From Gordonia amarae NBRC 15530 (GTDB lineage: Bacteria; Actinomycetota; Actinomycetes; Mycobacteriales; Mycobacteriaceae), in contig NZ_BAED01000011.1 in the NCBI RefSeq assembly GCF_000241345.1, forward strand, positions 1 to 37,730: a DNA stretch of 37,730 bases, read 5' to 3'. Under the pieces are notes generated by a model, which did not search any database, had not been told where the DNA came from, and was given only the letters and a program-made list of their open reading frames with translations. Positions within the stretch are counted from its first letter, which is position 1; each line of letters opens with the position of its first letter. Below are positions 5,924 through 30,820 of the stretch, in pieces. A program made the position numbers and the translations under genes.

Positions 5924-6694
5924 CTACACCAGCACGGGGAGCTGGTTTTCGGCGGCTTCCTTTTCCTCGGAGTCGACGGCCTTGAGCAGCAGCAGCGGGG
6001 TGGAGATCTTCCACACCGCGTACGCCAGGCAGGGCAGCCAGAAGGCGAACAGACCGTTCCAGGCCAGGGGGCCGTCCTTGAACACGTAGATGAACGCACC
6101 CGGGGCCAGGACCACTGCGAGCATGAAGTTGACGTAGGCGAACCAGCGCGGGAACACCGGCTCGGTGCGCTTGTCGATGAGGGTGGCCCAGCCCAGGCAC
6201 ACGCACTGCAGGCAGAAGATGAAGGCGAAACCGACGTACGAGAAGTAGAACAGGTCGGTCATCAATTGCAGGATCTCCGGGGAGCGTTCCTCGACCCGGT
6301 ACGCGGCGGCCGACAGGATGAACATCGGGTAGAAGAATCCGATCGGGGCCACCACACCCATCAGCACCTGATTCATGGTGAGCACGCCCCAGCCGCGTTC
6401 GATGCGGCGCATCTGCCAACTCGTGGTGACCACGAAGAAGTATTCGAGCGGGATGACGAACGAGCAGATCACCGTGGTCCACAGGATGCCGGCGCGATTG
6501 TCGATCATCCATTCCTTGACGTGATCGGCGCTCGATTGCGGATCGAGCGGCGGCTGCACCTTGGACAGCATGAAGAAGCAGCCGCCCTGCACGGCCATGA
6601 CCAGGAAGCCCGACCACGCCGAGAAACGCTGGAACTTATACAGATACGACTTGTCGACCGCGAATTTGGGCGGCGACATCTCTTGGATGCTCAC
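5924..6694 (-). CDS. Six-helix membrane protein of unknown function
   Basis: I do not recognise the family. The 256-residue product has six hydrophobic segments (about 24-43, 68-91, 109-131, 148-171, 185-205 and 213-232), short loops, and a charged, Glu-rich C-terminal tail. There is no signal peptide, no transporter ATP site and no clear heme-ligand pattern. The GTG at 6694-6692 is preferred because AAGGAGA lies nine bases upstream; an internal ATG at 6678 is possible. It is transcribed alone, divergent from the extradiol dioxygenase and convergent with the KstD-like gene. Its place inside the catabolic locus suggests a role in substrate or product transport, or as a membrane redox partner, but nothing in the sequence proves either. 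Confidence 0.8.
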   Translation of the reverse strand: MSIQEMSPPKFAVDKSYLYKFQRFSAWSGFLVMAVQGGCFFMLSKVQPPLDPQSSADHVKEWMIDNRAGILWTTVICSFVIPLEYFFVVTTSWQMRRIERGWGVLTMNQVLMGVVAPIGFFYPMFILSAAAYRVEERSPEILQLMTDLFYFSYVGFAFIFCLQCVCLGWATLIDKRTEPVFPRWFAYVNFMLAVVLAPGAFIYVFKDGPLAWNGLFAFWLPCLAYAVWKISTPLLLLKAVDSEEKEAAENQLPVLV

Positions 6695-7986: not shown

Positions 7987-9300
7987 ATGTCAGAACAACG
8001 GTATTTGCATTTGAATCTCGTCGGGAACGAGATCAACAGTCATCAGGGCGCGCCGGCCTACGAGCGCGACCACGGCGGCGGACCGGACCGGCAGAACGCC
8101 TATCTGCCGATCTCGGAGATGGGCAAGCTCGCAGAGGAAGGCTACTTCACGGCCATGTTCCTCGGCGACATCGCGGGCACCGCCGGCTCGCCCGCCCCCG
8201 ACGGGGGTCCGCCCGAACCGATCACGGCGTTCGCGGCGCTCGCCCGCGAAACCTCGTACCTGGGCCTGATCGCGACGGCGTCGTGCTCGTTCTACGATCC
8301 GTACAATCTGGCCCGGCTGCTGGCATCGATCGACCAGATCTCCGACGGCAGAGCTGGATTCAACGCTGTCACCAGCGTGAGCGACGAGTGGGCGCAGAAC
8401 TACAGCATGGAGGCGCACCTGGACCGGATCACCCGGTACAAGCGGGCCGACGAGTTCCTCGACATTCTGACCGCGCTGTGGGAGAAACGTGAGATCCGGA
8501 TCGACGCCGACCAGATCACCCGCTTCTACTCCGAACAGATCAATCACCGCGGCGAGCACTTCCAGGTGCTCGGGCCGCTGAATGTGGCGCCGAGCCCGCA
8601 GGGCCGACCGCTCATCGCGCAGGCAGGCGGTTCCGGACCGGGAATCGCCGTGGCCGCCAAGCACGCCGAGATGGTGTTCACCAACGCCACCACCCGGCAG
8701 CAGGCCGCCGACTACCGAGCCGAACTCGACGCGGCCTTGGTCGCCCGGGGCCGCGCCGCGGGCAGCGTTCCCGCCATCCCCGGCCTGGTCCCGTACCTGG
8801 GCAAGACCCGCGCCGACGCCGAGGACCTGTTGCACGCCCTCGACGAGAACGTGCCGTACGAGTTGTACGCCCCGTTCGCGCTGGTCCAGTTCGGGCTGGA
8901 GTTCACCTTCGACAGCATCAACGATCCGTTCCCGGTCGATCAGATCCCGCACCCGGAGACGGTGAAGGACACCATCAAGAGCACCTACGGCAACTATCTG
9001 GGCCTGTACAACTGGATCACCGAGAATCCGGGCGTCACGGTGCGGGACGTCACCGCGCAGTCGCTGGCCCGTGGTGGCGCCCAGCACCGCAAGTTCGTCG
9101 GTTCCTATGACGAGTTCGTCGACGATCTGGCGTCCTGGCATGCCGACGGTCAGGTAGGCGGCTTCAACCTGATGTTCCCGACCAGTGTGATCGGCGTGAA
9201 AGATTTTGTCGCGGAAGTTGTTCCGCGCCTCATCGATCGGGGCATCTATCGTGGAAAGCCGGACACCCGGCCGCTACGGGAACGTTTCGCGGGGGAGTGA
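7987..9300 (+). CDS. FMN-dependent monooxygenase, NtaA/SnaA/DszA family
   Basis: This is a 437-residue bacterial-luciferase-fold, group C flavoprotein monooxygenase. The N-terminus (LHLNLVGNEINSHQGA), the ASCSFYDPYNLARLLASIDQISDGRAGFNAVTS block and HFQVLGPLNVAPSPQGRPLIAQAGGSGPG are typical of the NtaA/SnaA/DszA branch. Known members use FMNH2 to oxidise nitrilotriacetate, pristinamycin intermediates or dibenzothiophene sulfone, and some cleave C-N or C-S bonds or do Baeyer-Villiger-like chemistry. The reaction here is unknown. FMNH2 must come from a separate reductase, possibly the HsaB-like protein at 260-766. The start ATG has CAGGGAA upstream, and the stop overlaps the upstream edge of the BVMO gene, implying coupled translation. 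Confidence 0.88.
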   Translation: MSEQRYLHLNLVGNEINSHQGAPAYERDHGGGPDRQNAYLPISEMGKLAEEGYFTAMFLGDIAGTAGSPAPDGGPPEPITAFAALARETSYLGLIATASCSFYDPYNLARLLASIDQISDGRAGFNAVTSVSDEWAQNYSMEAHLDRITRYKRADEFLDILTALWEKREIRIDADQITRFYSEQINHRGEHFQVLGPLNVAPSPQGRPLIAQAGGSGPGIAVAAKHAEMVFTNATTRQQAADYRAELDAALVARGRAAGSVPAIPGLVPYLGKTRADAEDLLHALDENVPYELYAPFALVQFGLEFTFDSINDPFPVDQIPHPETVKDTIKSTYGNYLGLYNWITENPGVTVRDVTAQSLARGGAQHRKFVGSYDEFVDDLASWHADGQVGGFNLMFPTSVIGVKDFVAEVVPRLIDRGIYRGKPDTRPLRERFAGE

Positions 9301-9305
9301 GCACT

Positions 9306-11162
9306 GTGACCGTGGAGCTCCGAGATCCCGGACCTCAGCCGGACACCTACGATCCGGACTGGGTGCACGCCAAGTACGCCTTCGAGCGGGCCAAACGCCT
9401 GCGCCGTGACGGTCTCGACCAGTTCGTCGAGGTCACCGCGGAGTTCTCGCACTACGCCGACGACCTGTACACCGAACGCACCGAACGTGACCCGGTCGAC
9501 GACGAGGTGCAGGTGCTGGTGATCGGCGCCGGCCTGGGCAGCCTGATCGCCGCGGTCCGGCTGCGTGAGGCCGGATTCGATGACATCCGGATGGTGGACA
9601 AGGCCGGCGATGTGGGCGGTACCTGGTACTGGAACAGGTATCCGGGCGCGCAGTGCGATGTCGAGGCGTATGTGTACATGCCGCTGCTCGAGGAACTCGA
9701 CTACATCCCCGAACGCAAGTACGCATTCGGTCCCGAGATCCGCAAGCACTGCGTGCGTATCGCCGAAAAGTATGACCTGTACCGTAATTCGCTGTTCCAG
9801 ACCGCGGTCACCGGGATGGAATGGGACGACGACGCGGGCAAGTGGACGGTCACCACGGACCGGGGCGACACCATTACCGCGACCGTCGTCGTGGTGTCGC
9901 CCGGTCCGCTGAGCCGCCCGAAACTGCCAGGCATTCCCGGGATCAACGAGTTCACCGGGCACACCTTCCACACGAGCCGCTGGGACTACGGCTACACCGG
10001 TGGTGGCGAGGAGAACTGGGAGCTGACCGGCCTGGCCGACAAGACGGTCGGCATCGTCGGCACCGGGGCGACTGCGCTGCAGTGTGTTCCGCACACGGGG
10101 CGGTTCGCTGAGCAACTCTACGTGTTCCAGCGCACCCCGGCCGCGGTGGACGTGCGCGGTGATCATCCGACCGACCCCGGGTTCGCGGCAGGACTCAAGC
10201 CGGGCTGGCAGAAGGAACGGATCGAGAACTTCACCCACTGGACCTCGGGTGCCGGTGCCGAGGTGGACCTGGTCTCGGACGGGTGGACCAAGGTGTCCAA
10301 CGACCTCACCACCCCTGCCGTGCTGCGGGAGATGGCCCGGCGCACCGAGCCGATGACGATGGAGGATATCGGCGAATTTCTCTACGAAGAGGACTTCAAG
10401 TCGATGGAGGCCGTGCGCGCACACATCGCCGACGTCGTCGACGATCCGGAGACCGCCAAGGCCCTCACCCCCTGGTACAAGCGGATGTGCAAGCGGCTCA
10501 GCTTCCACGACTCGTACCTGCAGACGTTCAACCGGGACAACGTCACTCTCGTCGACACCGACGGCCGGGGCATCGAACGGCTCACCACCGACGGCGTGGT
10601 GGTCGGCGGCACCGAGTACAAGGTGGATGCGCTGATCTTCGCCACCGGCTTCGAGGTCGGCACGAACTACACCAAGCGCGCCGGGTTCGATATCGTCGGC
10701 CGGAACGGGATCAGGCTCAGCGACAAGTGGGCCAAGGGGCCGCGCACGCTGCACGGCCTGCAGACCCACGACTTTCCCAACTGCTTCTTCCTGGGCTACA
10801 CCCAGTCGGGTATCGCCCCCAACTACGTGCACACCGCGGAGGAACGCGCCGGACATCTGGCCTACCTCCTGGGCCGGTGGCGTGAGCTGGGCGGTGGCGT
10901 GATCGAGGCCGACCAGGATGCCGAGGAACAGTGGTGCACGGCGATGGCCGACAGCACCGTGGTGGGCAAGCAGTTCTTCCTCGACTGCACACCCAGCTAT
11001 CTCGATTCCGAGGGCGACAACGACAACCCCGACAGCCTGCTGGTCGCCGGCTACGGCGGCGGGCCGATCGCGTTCTTCGACATCCTCCGGCAGTGGCGTG
11101 AGGCGGGGGACATGGCGGGGGTCTCGGTCAGCGGCGGAGCCCCGGCGGCGCCGGGACGCTGA
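9306..11162 (+). CDS. Type I Baeyer-Villiger monooxygenase
   Basis: The roughly 618-residue product shows the full type I BVMO signature: FAD Rossmann VIGAGLGSLIAAVRLREAG (about 72-90), DVGGTWYWNRYPGAQCDV, the fingerprint FTGHTFHTSRWD (about 216-227), and the NADPH Rossmann GIVGTGATA (about 249-257). The N-terminal extension of about 70 residues resembles the steroid-, phenylacetone- and cyclopentadecanone-monooxygenase branch, whose members accept bulky ketones. It would turn a cyclic ketone into a lactone, or a side-chain ketone into an ester. GTG at 9306 is preferred because GGGGGAG ends nine bases upstream. An in-frame GTG at 9297, overlapping the previous stop, would add three residues. 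The lactone must be opened by a hydrolase; the HsaD-like enzyme or a gene elsewhere could do so. Confidence 0.9.
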   Translation: MTVELRDPGPQPDTYDPDWVHAKYAFERAKRLRRDGLDQFVEVTAEFSHYADDLYTERTERDPVDDEVQVLVIGAGLGSLIAAVRLREAGFDDIRMVDKAGDVGGTWYWNRYPGAQCDVEAYVYMPLLEELDYIPERKYAFGPEIRKHCVRIAEKYDLYRNSLFQTAVTGMEWDDDAGKWTVTTDRGDTITATVVVVSPGPLSRPKLPGIPGINEFTGHTFHTSRWDYGYTGGGEENWELTGLADKTVGIVGTGATALQCVPHTGRFAEQLYVFQRTPAAVDVRGDHPTDPGFAAGLKPGWQKERIENFTHWTSGAGAEVDLVSDGWTKVSNDLTTPAVLREMARRTEPMTMEDIGEFLYEEDFKSMEAVRAHIADVVDDPETAKALTPWYKRMCKRLSFHDSYLQTFNRDNVTLVDTDGRGIERLTTDGVVVGGTEYKVDALIFATGFEVGTNYTKRAGFDIVGRNGIRLSDKWAKGPRTLHGLQTHDFPNCFFLGYTQSGIAPNYVHTAEERAGHLAYLLGRWRELGGGVIEADQDAEEQWCTAMADSTVVGKQFFLDCTPSYLDSEGDNDNPDSLLVAGYGGGPIAFFDILRQWREAGDMAGVSVSGGAPAAPGR

Positions 11163-12588: not shown

Positions 12589-13383
12589 TCACCAGGTCGC
12601 GGGGCCGGCGGCGAGTGCGTCGGAGATGGTGCGGGCCGCATGCAGTACCAGCGGTGCCAGGGGTTCGAGCGGGGCGTCGGCGCGGACGGCCACGGACAGG
12701 GCGCCCACGGGGCCGTCGTCGGTCCGGATGGCAGCACCCACGCAGGCGAGTCCGGGGATGAGCTGACCGCGTTCGACGGCGAGCCCGTTACGCGAACGGA
12801 TGCGCGCGAGCTCGCGGTGCAGTCCGTCGACATCGTCGATGACCGGTGCCGAACCGGTACTGCGGGTGGCGTTCATGATCTGGTTGTCGACGTACTCGGG
12901 GGCCATGCCCGCCATGATGGCCTTGCCGGCCGCTGTGCGGTGGGCGGGGGCCCGGCCGCCGACGCGGGAACTGAGTCGCGCTCCGGGACGGCCGCCGAAC
13001 ATGTCGAGGTAGTAGATCTCGGTGCCCGCGAGGGTCACCAGGTGGGTGCACGCCCCCGTGCGGTAGGTGAGTGCTTGCAGGACACCCGAAGCAGCCGAAC
13101 GCAATTCGTGCTGAGCCAGCTCCCGGCCGCCGAGGGTCAGGGCCCGGCTGCCGAGACTGTAGTGCGTCTTGGCATGGATCAGCCAGCGGCACTGCACCAA
13201 CTGGTCGAGGATGCGGTGCGCGGTCGAGCGGGGCAGACCCGTATGCCGGGTGACCTCGTCGAGCGTCAGTCGCGCCAGGGGCTTGTCGAATGCCTCCATG
13301 ATCAGGGTCATGCGCTCCACCATCGACAGCGGCAGGTTGCCGCGGGTGTCGACGTCGGAGTCCTTCTCCAGCAATGCGGTCAT
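12589..13383 (-). CDS. IclR-family transcriptional regulator
   Basis: The 264-residue protein has the IclR layout: an N-terminal winged helix-turn-helix (about 20-80, with LTLDEVTRHTGLPRSTAHRILDQL) and a C-terminal effector-binding domain (AHRTAAGKAIMA, and the VERGQLIPGLACVGAAIRTDDG segment typical of the ligand pocket). IclR proteins commonly control aromatic and ring-catabolism operons. The ATG at 13383-13381 gives the usual length; the open frame upstream is Pro-rich and reads through a G-run region, so it is not used. The ribosome site (GGACGGAA) is weak. The gene lies 107 bp after the RibB-like gene on the same strand and could be read from that operon or its own promoter. Its targets are unknown; the neighbouring operons are the natural candidates. 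Confidence 0.88.
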   Translation of the reverse strand: MTALLEKDSDVDTRGNLPLSMVERMTLIMEAFDKPLARLTLDEVTRHTGLPRSTAHRILDQLVQCRWLIHAKTHYSLGSRALTLGGRELAQHELRSAASGVLQALTYRTGACTHLVTLAGTEIYYLDMFGGRPGARLSSRVGGRAPAHRTAAGKAIMAGMAPEYVDNQIMNATRSTGSAPVIDDVDGLHRELARIRSRNGLAVERGQLIPGLACVGAAIRTDDGPVGALSVAVRADAPLEPLAPLVLHAARTISDALAAGPATW

Positions 13384-13427
13384 AGCGTTCCGTCCATAAG
13401 GGTCAGGGCCGGGAGCCGAAGGCGTTC

Positions 13428-13459
13428 GGGGCCAGGGGGTCAGGGGGCAGGGGAAAGGG
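13428..13459 (+). other. Five-run G-quadruplex-type motif upstream of iclR
   Basis: Plus-strand G-runs of 4, 5, 5, 4 and 3 are separated by loops of 3, 3, 2 and 3 nt. This fits the canonical intramolecular G-quadruplex pattern with one run to spare. It lies 45-76 bp upstream of the iclR start, on the template strand for that gene. Confidence 0.6.
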
Positions 13460-13490
13460 TCTGTGCGGACCAGCGGTAGGGGCCGGGCGG

Positions 13491-14141
13491 TCAATACCGG
13501 CTGTGGGCCGGCACCTGCCGATGCACGATCGGGATGTTGTGGCGTGCGGCGAAGGCCGCCGCGTCGTCGAGGTCGGGGAGTCCGGTGCCGCCGGGGGTGA
13601 CGAGCGCGGCCAGCACCGCGGCGACCGAACCCGCGTGTTCGGCGAGTTCGAGTGCGGCAGCGGCGGAATCACCGCAATGCCGTCCCGCCGCCACCCGGAC
13701 CGGGAGTACATGTCCGGGACGGGTGAAATCAGCGGGTGTGGCATCACTCGCACCGAGCAGGCGGATGGTGCGGGCACGATCGGCGGCGGAGATACCCGTA
13801 CCGATCCCGGCTGCCGCATCCACACCGATGCATTGCTGCGAGGCCATCCGGTCGGCGGACGGCGCGATCGGTGGCAGCCGGAGCTGATCACACCGGCTGT
13901 CCCGGAGAGCTACCTCCAGGAACCCCGACGAGTGCCGGATGAGGACCGCGGCCTGGTGGGTGGTCAGTCTGTCGGCGGCGCCGACGAGGTCGAAAGGTCC
14001 TGCGGGATCGTCGTACATCAGCACGAAGCCACCCCGTCGGAGCGCCGCGACGGCCTCGGTGAGCGTGTCCGCACGCGATGATCCGGGACGCATCGGGCGA
14101 ACGAGCCGGCCGTCGAGATCGGGGTCGATGATGGCGGTCAT
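13491..14141 (-). CDS. RibB-like protein (DHBP synthase fold) with degraded active site
   Basis: The 216-residue product aligns by eye with 3,4-dihydroxy-2-butanone 4-phosphate synthase (RibB) over its whole length. It keeps TGISAADRARTIR (115-127), DFTRPGHVLPVR (138-149) and an IRHSSG segment (68-73). The catalytic pieces are lost: the acidic loop DREN-EGD is replaced by a shorter DDPAGPFD (44-51), and GHTEA is replaced by GDSAA (157-161). Normal riboflavin-pathway activity is therefore unlikely, and a new function is probable. It starts 4 bp after the stop of the 98-residue protein and is the last gene of the crotonase/CoA-transferase operon. The frame could start further up, but the ATG at 14141 fits the RibB N-terminus. 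Homology is fairly sure; function is unknown. Confidence 0.72.
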   Translation of the reverse strand: MTAIIDPDLDGRLVRPMRPGSSRADTLTEAVAALRRGGFVLMYDDPAGPFDLVGAADRLTTHQAAVLIRHSSGFLEVALRDSRCDQLRLPPIAPSADRMASQQCIGVDAAAGIGTGISAADRARTIRLLGASDATPADFTRPGHVLPVRVAAGRHCGDSAAAALELAEHAGSVAAVLAALVTPGGTGLPDLDDAAAFAARHNIPIVHRQVPAHSRY

Positions 14142-14145
14142 GGCG

Positions 14146-14442
14146 TCAGTCCGAAGCCGGCAGCGGGGTGGACGATTTGGCGGCCAGCGGCACACCGCTC
14201 ACTGCGAGCTGACCGTCACCCGCTGTGGTGCACAGCAATTCGACGGCACCGTCGTCGGTGACGTAACGCTTGCCGAGCTGGGTGGTGCCTGCCTTCGGCG
14301 GAGTGCCCGGTGCGGCGGGAGCGGTTTCGGACATGGCCGAACCGTCGCATGTGAGGTCCAGATCTTCTGCGCCCCAGCGCACCACGATCACCGAGGTGGT
14401 GTCGACGGTGCTGTAGAGCCGCTTTCCTGCGGTGGGTTTCAT
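14146..14442 (-). CDS. Small conserved-looking protein, 98 residues, unknown function
   Basis: I do not recognise this family. A good ribosome site (GGGAGGA) precedes the ATG. The N-terminal part (RLYSTVDTTSVIVVRWG) looks like beta strands. A Pro/Ala-rich linker follows (about 42-50), and the C-terminal part (VELLCTTAGDGQLAVSGVPL) looks like a second strand pair. There are two cysteines, Cys32 and Cys71. There is no signal peptide or membrane helix. It lies 33 bp after the CoA-transferase and 4 bp before the RibB-like gene, so it is co-translated with both and may be a subunit or carrier in their reaction. That is inference from position only. Confidence 0.7.
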   Translation of the reverse strand: MKPTAGKRLYSTVDTTSVIVVRWGAEDLDLTCDGSAMSETAPAAPGTPPKAGTTQLGKRYVTDDGAVELLCTTAGDGQLAVSGVPLAAKSSTPLPASD

Positions 14443-14475
14443 GGCGGTCCTCCCGATGTGATGTGAAAGTGCCTG

Positions 14476-16875
14476 TCAGAAGGCGAGCTTGGTACCGATG
14501 ATCTTGTTCTGCTCCAGCACCTCGATGTCGGCGGCGGACAGGCCGAGACCGGTGAGGATCTCGGTGTTGTGCTCGCCGAGCAGCGGGGCCGAGCGCATGG
14601 TGGGGCCTTCGGGGGTGCCGGAGAAGCGCACCGGCAGGGTGGTGTGTGAGGCGGTGCCGTTCACCGGGTGGGTTACCTGGGCGAAGAATCCGCGTGCCTG
14701 GAGCTGTTCGAGGCCGGCCTGCCGGTGCGGCTGGATCACCTTGGCGACCGGGACACCGGCCTCCCACAGGGCGGCCACGATGTCGTCGTCGGAACGCTCC
14801 CGGCACCACGCGCCGAGTCGCTCGTCGACCTGGTCGTGGGCGGCGCGCCGTCCGGCGGCGGTATCCAGCGCCGGGTCGGTGGCCCACTCGGGGGAGCCGA
14901 TGGCCGTGCGCAGGGCCGCCCACTGGTCGTCGGTCTCGACGGCGATGGCGACCCAGTTGTCGTCGCGGCCGAACTCGTCCAGGCCCGAGGTCTGATACAG
15001 ATTCTGCGGTGCCGCGACGGGGCCCCGGTTGCCCTGCCGGTTCAGCAGAGCGCCGTAGGCCGAGTATTCGATGAACTGCTCGGCGGCCACATTGAGCGCC
15101 GCGTCCACCATGCTGGCCTCCACCAGGGTGCCCTCGCCGGTGCTGTCGCGGTGGGCCAGGGCGATGAGGAGGCCGTTGAGTGCGTGGATGCCGGCGTTCG
15201 GGTCGCCGATCGTGTACGGCTCCACCGGGTTCTGATCGGGATGACCGGTCAGCCAGGTCAGGCCGGAGGCGTCCTCGATGACGTAGGCGAAGGCGGCCTT
15301 GTCGCGCCACGGCCCGTCGAGACCGAAACCGGGCATCCGCACCATGATGATGTCGTCTCGCAGCGCCTTGACCGATTCGTAGTCGAGGCCGATCTGGTCG
15401 AGCACGCGCGGGGTGTAGTTCTCCACCAGCACGTCGCAGGTCTTGATCAGCTCACGCAGCAGTTCCTGGCCGCGTTCGGTCTGGAAGTTGAGGGTGATGC
15501 TCTTCTTGTTGGTGTTCAGGCCCGAGAAGATCGGCGACTTCTCCCACCACAGTTCGTCGGTCATCGGGACGCCGGCGATCATCCGGGTGCCGTCCGGACG
15601 CGACGTCGATTCGAGGTGGATGACCTCGGCGCCGAGGGTGGCGAGGATGTGGCTGCAGGAGGGGCCCGCCCAGAACGCGGTCATGTCGAGCACCCGCATC
15701 CCCTCGAACGGCAGCCCGATGGATTCGCCGGTGTACTTGGCGGCTTTGGCTTCTCGTTTCTCGGTGAGGATCGCTGTGTGTTCGCCGAGGCGGGGCGCGG
15801 CCTCCGGCCGGGGCAGGTCGAACGCGCTCATCGTGTACGGCCGGTCGGGCTGGCTGAATCCCGCGGTCGGGTTCTTGACGAAGGTGCCGCGTTCGCCGAA
15901 GTGAGCCATGTCGGTGGCGTTCGCGCCGTTGACCACCGGCGAGTTGGGAATCCGGAAGGCGGTGGCCTGCTCGGCGACATCCTCGACGGTGCGCTCGGCG
16001 ATCCACTCGTAGATCTGCGGTGCGAGCTCACCGGCACGGGCGGTGATCGCCAGCGGCGCATCGGGATCCACCCATTCGGGGTGGCCGACGAGCACGCAGA
16101 GATCCGACCATTGCTGCGCGGTGGCCGCACCGAGAGCCACCATGCCGTCGGCGGCCTGGGCGACACCGGGCACGAAGATCGACCGTTCGGACCGGAACGG
16201 CCGTTCCCGCAGCTCCAGGAAGGTGACGGGGTGGTAAGTCAGGCCGGCGACGGCGGTCTCGAGCTTGGACAGGTCCACGATCTGTCCCCGGCCGGTGGAC
16301 GCGGCTGAGCGGAGGGCGGCGAGGGTGGCCGCGGAAGCGTACGCACCGCCGAACCATTCGCCGATCTGGCCGCCGATGTGGATCGGTGCCCGGTCGGGGG
16401 CGCCACGGCCGAGACCGACCACACCGCCGGACCATGCCTGCACGGTGAATTCGGTTGCCGCACGGTCACTCCACGGACCTTCGAGGCCGAACGGGGTGAT
16501 CGTGGTGACCACCAGGTGCGGGTGGGCGGCCAGCAGCGCCGCGGGCGTCAGGGACTCGACCGCCGCGAACGGGGATTCCCGCGACCAGATCACCGCGTCC
16601 GCGGAGTGCAGCAGTGCGGTGAGCCGGTCGGCCTCGTCGACGCCGATCACGGCGCTCTTCTTGGATGAGGAGAGGTAGGAGAACAACGCCCCGTCGGTGC
16701 CCGCGTCGATGGAGGCGCCCGATGCGGACCAGGTGCGCAGCGAATCACCGTCCGGTGATTCGATTTTCACGACCTCGGCGCCGCCGTCGGCGAGGATCTT
16801 GGTGCAGTAGGCGCCCGCGATGCCCGCGGACAGGTCGACGATGAGGTACTGGTGAAGCGGGGCCGGTGCGGGCAT
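14476..16875 (-). CDS. Tandem double-domain CaiB/BaiF family CoA-transferase
   Basis: At 799 residues this is two class III CoA-transferase domains fused head to tail, about 1-375 and 388-799; single-domain members are about 400 residues. Each half has its own Rossmann-like start (LIVDLSAGIAGAYCTKILADGGAEVVKIE and MRVLDMTAFWAGPSCSHILATLGAEVIHLE). The nucleophilic Asp of the family is present in domain 2 (Asp558, GDPNAGIHA), but its counterpart in domain 1 is Glu173 (GEWFGGAYA). So one half is probably catalytic and the other altered. It would move CoA between a donor thioester and a carboxylic acid, giving acyl-CoA activation without ATP. GGAAGG precedes the ATG. The crotonase is 47 bp upstream in the same operon. 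Confidence 0.88.
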   Translation of the reverse strand: MPAPAPLHQYLIVDLSAGIAGAYCTKILADGGAEVVKIESPDGDSLRTWSASGASIDAGTDGALFSYLSSSKKSAVIGVDEADRLTALLHSADAVIWSRESPFAAVESLTPAALLAAHPHLVVTTITPFGLEGPWSDRAATEFTVQAWSGGVVGLGRGAPDRAPIHIGGQIGEWFGGAYASAATLAALRSAASTGRGQIVDLSKLETAVAGLTYHPVTFLELRERPFRSERSIFVPGVAQAADGMVALGAATAQQWSDLCVLVGHPEWVDPDAPLAITARAGELAPQIYEWIAERTVEDVAEQATAFRIPNSPVVNGANATDMAHFGERGTFVKNPTAGFSQPDRPYTMSAFDLPRPEAAPRLGEHTAILTEKREAKAAKYTGESIGLPFEGMRVLDMTAFWAGPSCSHILATLGAEVIHLESTSRPDGTRMIAGVPMTDELWWEKSPIFSGLNTNKKSITLNFQTERGQELLRELIKTCDVLVENYTPRVLDQIGLDYESVKALRDDIIMVRMPGFGLDGPWRDKAAFAYVIEDASGLTWLTGHPDQNPVEPYTIGDPNAGIHALNGLLIALAHRDSTGEGTLVEASMVDAALNVAAEQFIEYSAYGALLNRQGNRGPVAAPQNLYQTSGLDEFGRDDNWVAIAVETDDQWAALRTAIGSPEWATDPALDTAAGRRAAHDQVDERLGAWCRERSDDDIVAALWEAGVPVAKVIQPHRQAGLEQLQARGFFAQVTHPVNGTASHTTLPVRFSGTPEGPTMRSAPLLGEHNTEILTGLGLSAADIEVLEQNKIIGTKLAF

Positions 16876-16922
16876 TCGGGGGCCTTCCGTAACTGACGGT
16901 CTGAGATCGGGGAACGGCGCGT

Positions 16923-17930
16923 TTACTCGGCGCGCCGGCGAGCGGACTTGCTGAGCCGGAAGTCAGGCGGAAAACCCTCGTCGAAATCCTTGACCGCGTT
17001 GTTGATTCCGGCCGACAGGGTGTCCTCGTCGAGGGTGAGTTCCTGCGCGTCGGGCTTGGCGTGGTTGCCGATGGTCTCGAACAGTGCGGTGAGCATGCTG
17101 CCCATGTATTCGCCCTGGTTCTGTTTCATCAGCTCGAAGAAGATCTTCTGCATGAAGATGGTGTCGGCGGGGCGGTTGCGTGCGCACGCCAGCGCGTACT
17201 TGTCCACCTCGGCCTCGAGCTGGTCGCGGGAGACCACCTTGTTGGCGAAGCCGCAGTCGTACATCTCCTGCGCGGTGAACGGGCGCCCGGTGAAGACCAT
17301 CTCCTGGAATCTGCGGATGCCCATCGTCTGCGCCCAGGTCCACATACGCGGGCCGAAACCGATGTACCGGAACGCCGGATGCCCGAAAAGCGTGTCGTCC
17401 GAGGAGATCACGAGGTCGGCGTCGGCGGCCTGATAGAAGTGCCAGCCGTAGCAGTAGCCCTTGGCCTCGACGATGGAGATCTTCTTGAACTCCTGCAGGC
17501 TCCGGCAACCGGCGGCCGCGTTGGCATACCAGTTGGTGATGGCGGCGCCATGCCGGAACGAGCCCAGCGGCGGGAAGTTGACGGCGGAGTCGTCGTCGAC
17601 CCGCAGCTCGCGCAGCCAGCCACTGGCCGTCGGATCCATCGACATGGCCATCGCCTCGGGGATATCGGCCCCCGAGCCGAGATTGGAACCGACACCGCGG
17701 ATGACCACGACCTTCACATCGTCGTCGATCTCGGCGCGGTGCAGCAGGTCCGCGTACCGCAGCCGGGCGTCGGCCGTGGGGGCGTTGAGATGATCGGGCC
17801 GGTTGAAAGTGATGGTGGCGATCTTTGTCGCCGGATCCTTCGAATACAGAATAATTTCTTCGGCGCTGGACGGTTCGTACGTTGTGCCGTTTGTGCCGGT
17901 TGCGTCCTTGGTGCCGGAAATGTCGGTCAT
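16923..17930 (-). CDS. Crotonase-superfamily protein lacking both hydratase glutamates
   Basis: The 335-residue product has the crotonase fold: IATITFNRPDHLNA (38-50), the oxyanion-hole region GSNLGSGADIPEAM (81-94) and the second turn GYCYGWHFYQAADADLVIS (158-176). In enoyl-CoA hydratase two Glu residues add water. Here the GGGCE-like position reads YGWHF (161-165) and the PE position reads HPAFR (184-188), so neither Glu is evident. It is also longer than typical hydratases, with an insert at about 95-145. A hydrolase, retro-Claisen or isomerase reaction is more likely than simple hydration. The ATG at 17930 matches the family start; a much longer open frame upstream is rejected. This is the first gene of the operon running to 13491. 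Confidence 0.82.
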   Translation of the reverse strand: MTDISGTKDATGTNGTTYEPSSAEEIILYSKDPATKIATITFNRPDHLNAPTADARLRYADLLHRAEIDDDVKVVVIRGVGSNLGSGADIPEAMAMSMDPTASGWLRELRVDDDSAVNFPPLGSFRHGAAITNWYANAAAGCRSLQEFKKISIVEAKGYCYGWHFYQAADADLVISSDDTLFGHPAFRYIGFGPRMWTWAQTMGIRRFQEMVFTGRPFTAQEMYDCGFANKVVSRDQLEAEVDKYALACARNRPADTIFMQKIFFELMKQNQGEYMGSMLTALFETIGNHAKPDAQELTLDEDTLSAGINNAVKDFDEGFPPDFRLSKSARRRAE

Positions 17931-18208: not shown

Positions 18209-18226
18209 TCAATCAAGTGCTTGATT
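18209..18226. promoter_or_regulatory. KstR2-type operator upstream of the crotonase operon
   Basis: An inverted repeat AATCAAG-TG-CTTGATT at 18211-18226 contains an exact match to AnCAAGnnCTTGnT, which I recall as the KstR2 operator consensus. On the minus strand it is followed by TTGACT, a possible -35 element. The site is about 280 bp upstream of the crotonase start. The local TetR protein is the nearest candidate binder. Confidence 0.65.
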
Positions 18227-18306: not shown

Positions 18307-19011
18307 CTACACAGGTGTGACAGGCGCGGTCCAGACGCCCACCAGCATGTCGACGAGGCCGGTGGCCATCTCTGACCAGGACGCCCGGATCGTCGGCTCG
18401 CCGTTGGCGATCGCACGCTCGCGCTGAGCGCACATCTGGATGATCAGGAACATCGAGCAGTCGACGCGTTCGGGCTGAACCTGCACGGGCAGGAACGGCA
18501 GGCACTTGAGCAGTCCGTCCATCGATGCGCGCAACGACGGCGACTGCGCGAAGGACGACTCCATCAGGATGTCGCGGAGCTCGGGATCGGTCATCATCTG
18601 GGTGCCGACCCGGGCGAACCAGGTGGGGGTGCCGATCTCGTCGAAACGGTCGGTGATGGGGCGGACCTGGCAGTCGAGCCAGTCGCGCACGTTGAGAGAG
18701 CCGGCGATCTGCGCGAGCATGGCCTCACGGGCGGGTTCGACGCTGTTGTGGAACCGCGAGACCATCGCCTCGATGAGGTCGGCCCGGCTGCCGAAGTGGT
18801 AGCCGACGGCTGCGGTATTGCCCTGACCAGCGGCTTCGGCGATCTGCCGGTTGGATACGGCGTAGATGCCGTGCTCGGCGAAGAGGCGTTCGGCGGTGTC
18901 GAGGATCAGTTCCCGCGTCGCTTCCTTCTTGCTGCTGCGACGCGTGGCGGGCCTGGCGGTACCGCCGGTTCCGGTGGGGGTGTCCTGGGAGTCGCGCAGG
19001 TTGCTCGTCAT
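18307..19011 (-). CDS. TetR-family transcriptional regulator
   Basis: The 234-residue protein has an N-terminal TetR DNA-binding domain after a basic, disordered leader of about 28 residues. The helix-turn-helix spans about 48-80, with SNRQIAEAAGQGNTAAVGYHFGSRADLIEAM. The C-terminal part is a helical ligand domain with no family-specific motif I recognise. The recognition helix is not obviously that of KstR2 (which I recall as SGSLYHHF), so this is not called KstR2. It sits between two promoter regions that share the motif TCAATCAANNGCTTGA, one controlling the crotonase operon and one the SDR/P450 run. This suggests it represses both and is released by a pathway intermediate. The ATG at 19011-19009 has only a weak ribosome site. 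Confidence 0.88.
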   Translation of the reverse strand: MTSNLRDSQDTPTGTGGTARPATRRSSKKEATRELILDTAERLFAEHGIYAVSNRQIAEAAGQGNTAAVGYHFGSRADLIEAMVSRFHNSVEPAREAMLAQIAGSLNVRDWLDCQVRPITDRFDEIGTPTWFARVGTQMMTDPELRDILMESSFAQSPSLRASMDGLLKCLPFLPVQVQPERVDCSMFLIIQMCAQRERAIANGEPTIRASWSEMATGLVDMLVGVWTAPVTPV

Positions 19012-29772: not shown

Positions 29773-30820
29773 ATATCGCGGCAGTGGCCTCGTCCGGGCG
29801 GGCCTCATCGGCCTGACCCTGCTCATCCTCACCGTGCTGGCCGGACTCAACACGGCCAAGGTGGGCGCCTGGTTCACCAGCATGACCTACCAGGCGGACT
29901 TCGAGGAGGCCGGTGGACTCACCGCCGGCGCCGACGTGATGGTGTCGGGCGTGCGGGTGGGCACGGTGTCCGAGGTCGAACTCCACGACGGGCTGGCCAG
30001 GGTCCATTTCACCGTCGACACCGACACCCGGCTCGGCCGTGACACCGCGGTGCAGATCCGTACCGGATCGCTGCTGGGACAACGCCTGGTCACCGTCGAA
30101 CCGAAAGGTGCGGGAACGTTGCTCCCGTCGGACGTGATCCCGGTGACCCGCACCGCGTCCCCGTACTCGCTGAACGAGGCCGTCGACGACCTCACCACCA
30201 ACGCCACCGACATCGACACCAAGCAGCTCAACGCATCGCTGGAGGTGCTCACCGACACGATGACCGCCATCAGTCCCGACCTCGGACCCACCCTCGACGC
30301 GCTCACCGACGTCTCGCGCGGCATCAACTCCCGCAACGACTCACTGCGTCAACTGCTGTCGGCCACGAGCGACATCACCGGGGTGATCGGTCAACGCGCG
30401 CAGAAGGTCAACACGTTGATCCTCAACGCGAATTCGCTGCTCGGGGTGCTGGTGCAGCGGCGCGAGCAGATCTCGTCGCTGCTGGTGAACGTGACAGCCG
30501 TCGCGAAACAACTCACCGGCCTGGTGGCCGACAACGAGAAGCAACTGGCACCCACACTGACACAACTCAATTCGGTGCTGGCCATGCTGGAGAAGAACCG
30601 TGACAACATCAGCAAGGCGCTGCCGCTGTTCGTGAAGGTCAGCACCACCCAGGGCGAGGCGGTCTCGGGCGGACCCTTCTACCAGGCGTACGTGGCCAAC
30701 CTGATGCCCGGTCCGCTGTTCCAGCCGTTCATCGACCGCGCGTTCGGACTCAAACCGGAGGCCAAGATTCCCGGACTCGGTGGGGGCATTCCGTTGCCGG
30801 GGAATCGGGGTGGACGATGA
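29765..30820 (+). CDS. mceC: Mce family protein C
   Basis: The 351-residue product has an N-terminal anchor (about 9-30), the MCE domain (YQADFEEAGGLTAGADVMVSGVRVGTVSEV, LLGQRLVTVEP) and a long coiled-coil helical region (LNASLEVLTD through ITGLVADNEKQ-type heptads). The tail is Gly/Pro-rich and ends GIPLPGNRGGR. It overlaps mceB by 8 bp and mceD by 4 bp. Confidence 0.92.
   Translation: MHRYRGSGLVRAGLIGLTLLILTVLAGLNTAKVGAWFTSMTYQADFEEAGGLTAGADVMVSGVRVGTVSEVELHDGLARVHFTVDTDTRLGRDTAVQIRTGSLLGQRLVTVEPKGAGTLLPSDVIPVTRTASPYSLNEAVDDLTTNATDIDTKQLNASLEVLTDTMTAISPDLGPTLDALTDVSRGINSRNDSLRQLLSATSDITGVIGQRAQKVNTLILNANSLLGVLVQRREQISSLLVNVTAVAKQLTGLVADNEKQLAPTLTQLNSVLAMLEKNRDNISKALPLFVKVSTTQGEAVSGGPFYQAYVANLMPGPLFQPFIDRAFGLKPEAKIPGLGGGIPLPGNRGGR

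What the first reader, a model, noticed from the sequence alone, without database searches (positions are those of the whole stretch)
13491..17930. Four-gene operon: atypical crotonase, double CoA-transferase, 98-residue unknown, RibB-like pseudo-enzyme
Three of four products have altered active sites (crotonase without both Glu; CoA-transferase domain 1 with Glu for Asp; RibB-like without its acidic loop and GHTEA), and the fourth is unrecognised. They are spaced 47, 33 and 4 bp apart behind a KstR2-type operator. I know no described pathway that uses this set. It is the best candidate here for an undescribed reaction module, perhaps CoA-dependent ring opening or fragment processing. Function is inference.
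Basis: partly seen in the sequence, partly recalled or inferred. Interest (0 to 1): 0.8.

Follow-up and report, generated by a model that had tools for sequence, protein, structure and literature searches.

The report
Crotonase–CoA-transferase module with orphan partners
In Gordonia bacteria, four adjacent genes beside homologues of steroid-degrading enzymes likely attach coenzyme A to a ring-opened molecule and then cut it further; two of the four travel together across many actinobacteria, and a third belongs to an unnamed small-protein family that is likely tied to making CoA esters.

Summary
In detail: gene order, 47/33/4-bp gaps and altered active sites are in the sequence. The reading needs revising. 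(1) The core is a conserved pair: the crotonase gene is directly followed by the fused CoA-transferase gene in 73 of the 80 best crotonase loci. (2) The 98-residue protein is an unnamed family. It lies directly after the CoA-transferase gene in 9 of those 80 loci, beside an acyl-CoA ligase gene in 11 of 20 other neighbourhoods fetched, and in 38 of 38 family genomes with the CoA-transferase that were screened for it. (3) The close RibB-like gene is nearly confined to Gordonia (6 of 6 Gordonia genomes with the CoA-transferase; one Rhodococcus protein also). (4) The 'KstR2' site is likelier the operator of the neighbouring TetR gene; this is not settled. (5) An IclR gene is a likely fifth member. 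Best reading: CoA loading plus a non-hydratase crotonase step in a steroid-like catabolic locus. Four BVMO-bearing loci lack the amidohydrolase and M24-fold genes that most others have, suggesting two ring-opening routes into one exit. The substrate is unknown.

The parts
16923..17930 (-). Atypical crotonase (335 aa) without the hydratase Glu pair; Tyr166 and His164 invariant in 80 relatives
   Evidence: PF00378; residue counts over 80 loci
14476..16875 (-). Fused double family III CoA-transferase (799 aa); domain 2 Asp558, domain 1 Glu173
   Evidence: two PF02515 domains; PDB alignments; residue counts
14146..14442 (-). 98-residue unnamed family; predicted all-beta, mean pLDDT 92.7
   Evidence: no Pfam/NCBIfam/PDB sequence match; 35-member alignment; model
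13491..14141 (-). RibB (DHBP synthase)-like protein without its acidic loop, GHTEA and later Glu
   Evidence: PF00926; alignment to own-genome RibBA-type protein
12589..13494 (-). IclR-family regulator, likely fifth gene of the operon (ATG 13383 or TTG 13494)
   Evidence: PF01614/PF09339; start candidates; next to the RibB-like gene in Gordonia relatives
18212..18225 (.). Palindrome ATCAAGCACTTGAT upstream of the crotonase gene; likely operator of the local TetR
18307..19011 (-). TetR-family regulator, with a homologue of 40% identity or more in 44 of 80 crotonase loci
   Evidence: PF00440
19522..25849 (+). Linked SDR1, P450a (closest solved structure CYP105Q4), KstD-like, P450b and mycofactocin-type SDR2
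   Evidence: linkage
7987..11162 (+). LLM-type monooxygenase and BVMO, overlapping genes
   Evidence: NCBIfam TIGR03860 (above cut-off) and NF045818 (below cut-off) matches; linkage

Best explanation
The four genes form an operon-like run in a locus with homologues of steroid-degrading enzymes, where the fused CoA-transferase is predicted to load CoA onto a ring-cleavage acid, the crotonase would then cut or rearrange that CoA ester, the 98-residue protein likely assists the loading, and the RibB-like protein, which lacks the catalytic motifs of its family, is likely regulatory. Shown: order, spacing, active-site states, conserved crotonase/CoA-transferase pairing, and linkage of the 98-residue family to genes of acyl-CoA-forming families. 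Inferred: that oxidation by P450a, SDR1 and the BVMO/LLM pair opens a ring or side chain to an acid in Gordonia, while amidohydrolase plus two M24-fold proteins would serve this step in most other loci; that CoA comes from succinyl-CoA or is recycled from the product; that the crotonase uses Tyr/His in place of the Glu pair for a retro-Claisen-type hydrolysis or an isomerisation, as EchA20 and BadI hydrolyse ring CoA esters; and that a local TetR and the IclR protein control the operon.
For: Crotonase directly followed by CoA-transferase in 73 of 80 loci; in 2 more it directly precedes. A second, diverged crotonase/CoA-transferase pair (56% and 31%) lies beside the first in a genome of genus g2, probably Mycobacterium. 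Window homologues of steroid enzymes: HsaA-, HsaB-, HsaD- and KstD-like, all below NCBIfam's naming cut-offs, plus an Mce operon. 98-aa gene directly after the CoA-transferase gene in 9 of 80 loci, beside an acyl-CoA ligase gene in 11 of 20 neighbourhoods, and in 38 of 38 screened genomes with the CoA-transferase. EchA20 as a crotonase that hydrolyses a ring CoA ester: PMC5380842 (passages). BVMO and LLM that oxidise progesterone: PMC12239570 (abstract, section 7 and passages).
Against: No substrate, no expression data and no assay. The crotonase model failed (mean pLDDT 39.7), so roles of Tyr166 and His164 are guesses. The 98-aa gene is megabases from the CoA-transferase gene by linear coordinate in 7 of 27 same-contig genomes, and 9 of 20 neighbourhoods show no ligase within 500 bp. 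The co-occurrence is not corrected for phylogeny. Four of 80 crotonase loci have no close CoA-transferase; one of these, L055, has two CoA-transferase-like stretches of 31-32% upstream.
Confidence: 0.45

Rival explanations
1. The pair would work like CaiB/CaiD of carnitine metabolism (recalled): CoA is only a shuttled handle, passed from product to next substrate, and the crotonase does a hydration, dehydration or isomerisation with no carbon-carbon cleavage.
For: Family III CoA-transferase and crotonase are the two partners in both cases; both CoA-transferase domains match the CaiB structures, weakly.
Against: The crotonase lacks the hydratase Glu pair; the locus carries ring-opening oxygenase homologues.
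Confidence: 0.25
2. The operon would serve the canonical HIP (rings C/D) pathway as a KstR2-controlled variant of EchA20/IpdAB.
For: A KstR2-consensus palindrome stands upstream; two of three Gordonia relatives differ from its core by one base; EchA20 and IpdAB are likewise a crotonase and a CoA-transferase-type enzyme (PMC5380842).
Against: The consensus is no commoner than its control in this genome; the three Gordonia relatives share a longer, partly different palindrome there; IpdAB belongs to another CoA-transferase family (recalled); the pair mostly travels with P450, amidohydrolase and M24-fold genes.
Confidence: 0.1
3. The RibB-like protein would be an active enzyme with new chemistry in the pathway, standing in for the amidohydrolase/M24 genes that Gordonia lacks.
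For: Kept in 6 of 6 Gordonia genomes with the CoA-transferase, while this genome has no match above 32% to the amidohydrolase and to one of the two M24-fold proteins (the other was not searched); TGISAADR and RPGHV are retained.
Against: The metal-binding Glu and His of DHBP synthase (recalled) are lost; one non-Gordonia locus with BVMO and no M24 genes has no RibB-like gene within its flanks (L071).
Confidence: 0.12

Closest known systems
EchA20 (and BadI), ring-opening crotonases
   Same: Crotonase-family proteins in ring catabolism that act on CoA esters without plain hydration (PMC5380842, passages)
   Different: Best NCBIfam scores, all below cut-off, go to PRK08272/PRK08290, not badI or menB; paired here with a family III CoA-transferase; activity unknown
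Benzylsuccinate CoA-transferase BbsEF (PDB 9fn0)
   Same: Family III CoA-transferase of two unlike halves; 9fn0_B is the best PDB match of the full protein by a narrow margin
   Different: Two separate chains there, one fused chain here; YfdW scores equally on domain 2, and 4ed9 best on domain 1
DHBP synthase (RibB)
   Same: PF00926 domain, TGISAADR and RPGHV motifs
   Different: Acidic loop, GHTEA and later Glu lost; the genome has a separate RibBA-type gene with the motifs intact
pdc progesterone cluster of Caenibius tardaugens
   Same: A type I BVMO gene close to an LLM gene (PMC12239570)
   Different: Here the two genes overlap with no regulators between them, in a far larger locus; sequence identity to the pdc enzymes not tested

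Membership tests
Enoyl-CoA hydratase (crotonase with Glu pair) | PF00378 crotonase domain | tested here: met
   E 2.6e-22
Enoyl-CoA hydratase (crotonase with Glu pair) | Two catalytic Glu | tested here: not met
   Tyr166 in 80 of 80, Ala/Ser186 in 80 of 80
EchA20/BadI-type ring-opening crotonase | Hydrolytic C-C cleavage of a cyclic CoA ester | not testable with these tools
   needs assay
Family III CoA-transferase | PF02515 domain and catalytic Asp | tested here: met
   two domains; Asp558 in 74 of 74 readable relatives
DHBP synthase (RibB) | Acidic loop RENEGD, GHTEA His and later Glu | tested here: not met
   AGPFD, GDSAA and Ala instead
KstR2 regulon | AnCAAGnnCTTGnT operator (consensus recalled) kept in close relatives | tested here: inconclusive
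   present in the window; the CAAGnnCTTG core is absent at that place in 3 of 3 Gordonia loci, but two differ from it by one base
pdc progesterone cluster | BVMO and LLM genes with TetR and LuxR regulators between | tested here: not met
   BVMO and LLM genes overlap, no regulator between (PMC12239570)
98-residue family as a known domain | Match to Pfam, NCBIfam or PDB sequence | tested here: not met
98-residue family as a known fold | Clear structural match to a solved chain | tested here: inconclusive

The most novel reading that the evidence does not exclude
An undescribed, modular actinobacterial pathway for a steroid-like or terpenoid substrate class: two interchangeable ring-opening sets (BVMO/LLM, or amidohydrolase plus two M24-fold enzymes) feed one CoA-transferase/Glu-less crotonase exit, and the 98-residue protein founds a new family of small partner proteins for enzymes that make acyl-CoA.
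Probability: 0.3. Interest if true: 0.75.

Novelty: new variant of a known kind. Interest (0 to 1): 0.55.

Why it matters
If true, a crotonase encoded by 474 matched stretches in a species-level genome collection, and paired with the CoA-transferase in 73 of the 80 loci examined, would mark one step of an uncharted steroid-like pathway. The step could be tested with two purified proteins. The 98-residue family would give a first lead on an accessory factor of acyl-CoA formation.

Tried and rejected
Set aside: a KstR2 operator as the main control, not excluded. A KstR-type pattern (recalled) has 45 sites in the genome against 14 for its control, none in the window's contig. Rejected: an internal repeat in the 98-residue protein, suggested by its strand order but not supported by shuffles (consensus score reached by 1085 of 2000; 9 of 35 single sequences reached by 10 or fewer of 200). 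Led nowhere: structure of the crotonase (mean pLDDT 39.7; not used); fold comparison of the 98-residue model; NCBIfam naming beside three of the four other KstR2-consensus sites, which gave an enoyl-CoA hydratase with an acyl-CoA-dehydrogenase-like neighbour at one site and no gene that I could name as HIP-pathway (the fourth site, L152, was not scanned); paper searches for the cluster and for CYP105Q4 context (passages of PMC6237146); passages of PMC9782250. The BVMO/M24 exclusion (4 BVMO loci against 65 M24 loci; chance 0.0009 if loci were independent) rests on two lineages only, since three of the four are Gordonia.

Full report
WHAT IS THERE. The window lies in a 5.3-Mb genome of the genus Gordonia: genomes labelled same genus carry contigs of the lengths of named Gordonia records (G582 and L035, Gordonia hankookensis; G510 and L037, Gordonia sp. 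ABSL1-1). Reading on the minus strand: crotonase (16923-17930), fused CoA-transferase (14476-16875), 98-aa protein (14146-14442), RibB-like protein (13491-14141), gaps 47, 33 and 4 bp, then an IclR gene. Around it: HsaB-, HsaA- and HsaD-like proteins, two KstD-like proteins, an extradiol dioxygenase, LLM, BVMO, TetR, two P450s, two SDRs and an Mce operon; the Hsa-, KstD- and BVMO-type matches are below NCBIfam's naming cut-offs. P450a matches CYP105Q4 best among solved structures (504 bits); P450b matches a vitamin D hydroxylase (210 bits).

ACTIVE SITES. Crotonase: enoyl-CoA hydratase Glu positions (recalled) are Tyr166 and Ala186, with His164, Tyr166, Arg188 and Tyr189 in 80 of 80 relatives. 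The relatives were found with the peptide patterns KGYCYGW and MWTW[AV]QT, so residues inside those patterns are conserved partly by selection; the four named are outside them. CoA-transferase: Asp558 of domain 2 in 74 of 74 readable relatives; domain 1 position 173 is Glu in 54, Asp in 17 and other in 4 of 75, so domain 1 may still work. RibB-like: three motif positions lost, TGISAADR and RPGHV kept; many actinobacterial PF00926 proteins show like losses among those aligned, where I printed 52 rows of 122.

CONSERVATION. A scan of one genome per species gave 474 stretches that encode a crotonase relative, of which the best 80 loci were kept. In 73 of 80 the CoA-transferase gene follows directly; in L073 and L087 it precedes; L065 ends 167 bp after the crotonase; L055, L074, L089 and L099 have no close CoA-transferase, though L055 has 31-32% relatives upstream. 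The 98-aa gene is within 10 of 80 loci, directly after the CoA-transferase gene in 9 (three Gordonia, Actinobacteria bacterium OK074, Streptomyces, Saccharopolyspora, Pseudonocardia, Actinophytocola, Amycolatopsis). The RibB-like gene at 55% identity or more is in 3 of 80, all Gordonia. Over whole genomes, the CoA-transferase occurs in 53 of 351 family genomes at E 1e-200 or less; of 28 genomes then searched for the RibB-like protein, all 6 Gordonia with the CoA-transferase have it beside that gene at 55% or more, and the 5 Gordonia tested without the CoA-transferase have nothing above 43%. One result against a pure Gordonia trait: a Rhodococcus sp. NPDC058521 RibB-like protein (54%, P0134) and crotonase (80%, P0009) are both listed with a contig of 120225 bases; I did not see that locus. 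So the complete foursome was seen only in Gordonia and may extend to that strain.

THE 98-RESIDUE FAMILY. No Pfam, NCBIfam or PDB sequence match. It is in 69 of 397 genomes of the order. All 38 family genomes, this one included, that have the CoA-transferase and were also screened carry it; 8 more family genomes have it but are not among the CoA-transferase matches, and whether one search drew them is not listed. On one contig the two genes are 6-54 kb apart in 20 of 27 other genomes and megabases apart, by linear coordinate, in 7; in 10 they are on different contigs. I fetched 20 neighbourhoods out of the matches listed, among them the second copy in this genome (L115): in 11 of 20 an acyl-CoA ligase of one clade lies within 190 bp on the same strand, in 9 none within 500 bp. 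The model is all-beta with mean pLDDT 92.7; no solved structure matched clearly. I infer an accessory role in acyl-CoA formation.

RIBB-LIKE GENES IN SUCH LOCI. In four Nocardia loci a RibBA-like gene lies about 6-12 kb after the CoA-transferase gene (L039, L046, L048; L184; L183 is the same genome as L048). The two sequences that I read (L183, L184) lack RENEGD and GHTEA but keep the later Glu. In L185 a degenerate RibB-like gene sits between HsaB- and HsaA-like genes, and in L187 a RibBA with intact motifs lies beside HsaA-, HsaD-, HsaB- and IclR-like genes. Two other RibB-like loci that I fetched (L186, L190) showed no HsaA- or HsaB-like neighbour at my threshold. A history as flavin supply for flavin monooxygenases, later turned to another use, is a guess.

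TWO UPSTREAM SETS. In 65 of 80 loci at least one of two M24-fold genes is in the locus, in 63 of these 65 with an amidohydrolase gene. The four loci with a close BVMO (L035-L037, L071) have neither, and this genome has no match above 32% to the amidohydrolase and to the first M24-fold protein (the second was not searched). Three of the four are Gordonia, and flanks end at 10 kb, so this is suggestive only. In one genome of genus g2, probably Mycobacterium, the locus extends over tens of kilobases with a second crotonase/CoA-transferase pair, KstD-like, LLM, acyl-CoA dehydrogenase and methylmalonyl-CoA-mutase-like genes.

CONTROL. The KstR2 consensus (recalled) occurs 5 times in the genome, its reversed control 7 times. 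In the three Gordonia relatives the same place has AAATCAAGCAGTTGATTGACTT (L036, L037; one base off the KstR2 core) or AAGTCAATCGATTGATTGACTT (L035). A related palindrome, RRRTCAA-N4-TTGAYYY, is in 29 of 80 loci (31 sites, 0 for the mirror control), mostly in front of the TetR gene in the mycobacterial loci; in 10 of these loci it contains the CAAGnnCTTG core. That exact pattern does not match at 18212 in the window, where the spacing differs; its single window match, at 30405, lies in the Mce operon. I favour the local TetR as regulator, but KstR2 binding is not excluded.

MECHANISM AND LIMITS. The model is given under best explanation. Direct support ends at gene content, linkage and residues; substrate, CoA donor, crotonase reaction and the roles of the small and RibB-like proteins are inferred. 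Ten searches of the open-access library listed no paper that I recognised as describing this set. Of four papers I saw more than the listing: PMC12239570 (abstract, section 7, passages) and passages of PMC6237146, PMC9782250 and PMC5380842. Most subscription papers are not held.

Noticed in passing
L187:1224-9139: A RibBA-type gene with intact RENEGD and GHTEA motifs sits beside HsaA-, HsaD-, HsaB- and IclR-like genes in a Nocardia genome: possible dedicated flavin supply for a flavin-monooxygenase pathway.
   Followed up: partly
L185:5815-8295: A degenerate RibB-like gene between a flavin reductase (HsaB-like) and an HsaA-like gene in another Nocardia genome.
   Followed up: partly
L141-L144: A catabolic supercluster in a genome that is probably mycobacterial, with two crotonase/CoA-transferase pairs, KstD-like, LLM, acyl-CoA dehydrogenase and methylmalonyl-CoA-mutase-like genes; the 98-aa gene lies about 40 kb from the first pair, beside an acyl-CoA ligase gene.
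   Followed up: partly
window 5924-6694 (-): A 256-aa protein with no NCBIfam match that looks like a membrane protein by eye, 82-84% identical in Gordonia relatives.
   Followed up: no
L115:2071-9631 (own genome, C63): Second copy of the 98-aa family beside an acyl-CoA ligase gene and about 4 kb from a BVMO gene 40% identical to that of the window: possibly a second ring-compound locus.
   Followed up: no
window 7987-11162 (+): Overlapping LLM and BVMO genes, the two enzyme types shown to oxidise progesterone in Caenibius tardaugens (PMC12239570).
   Followed up: partly
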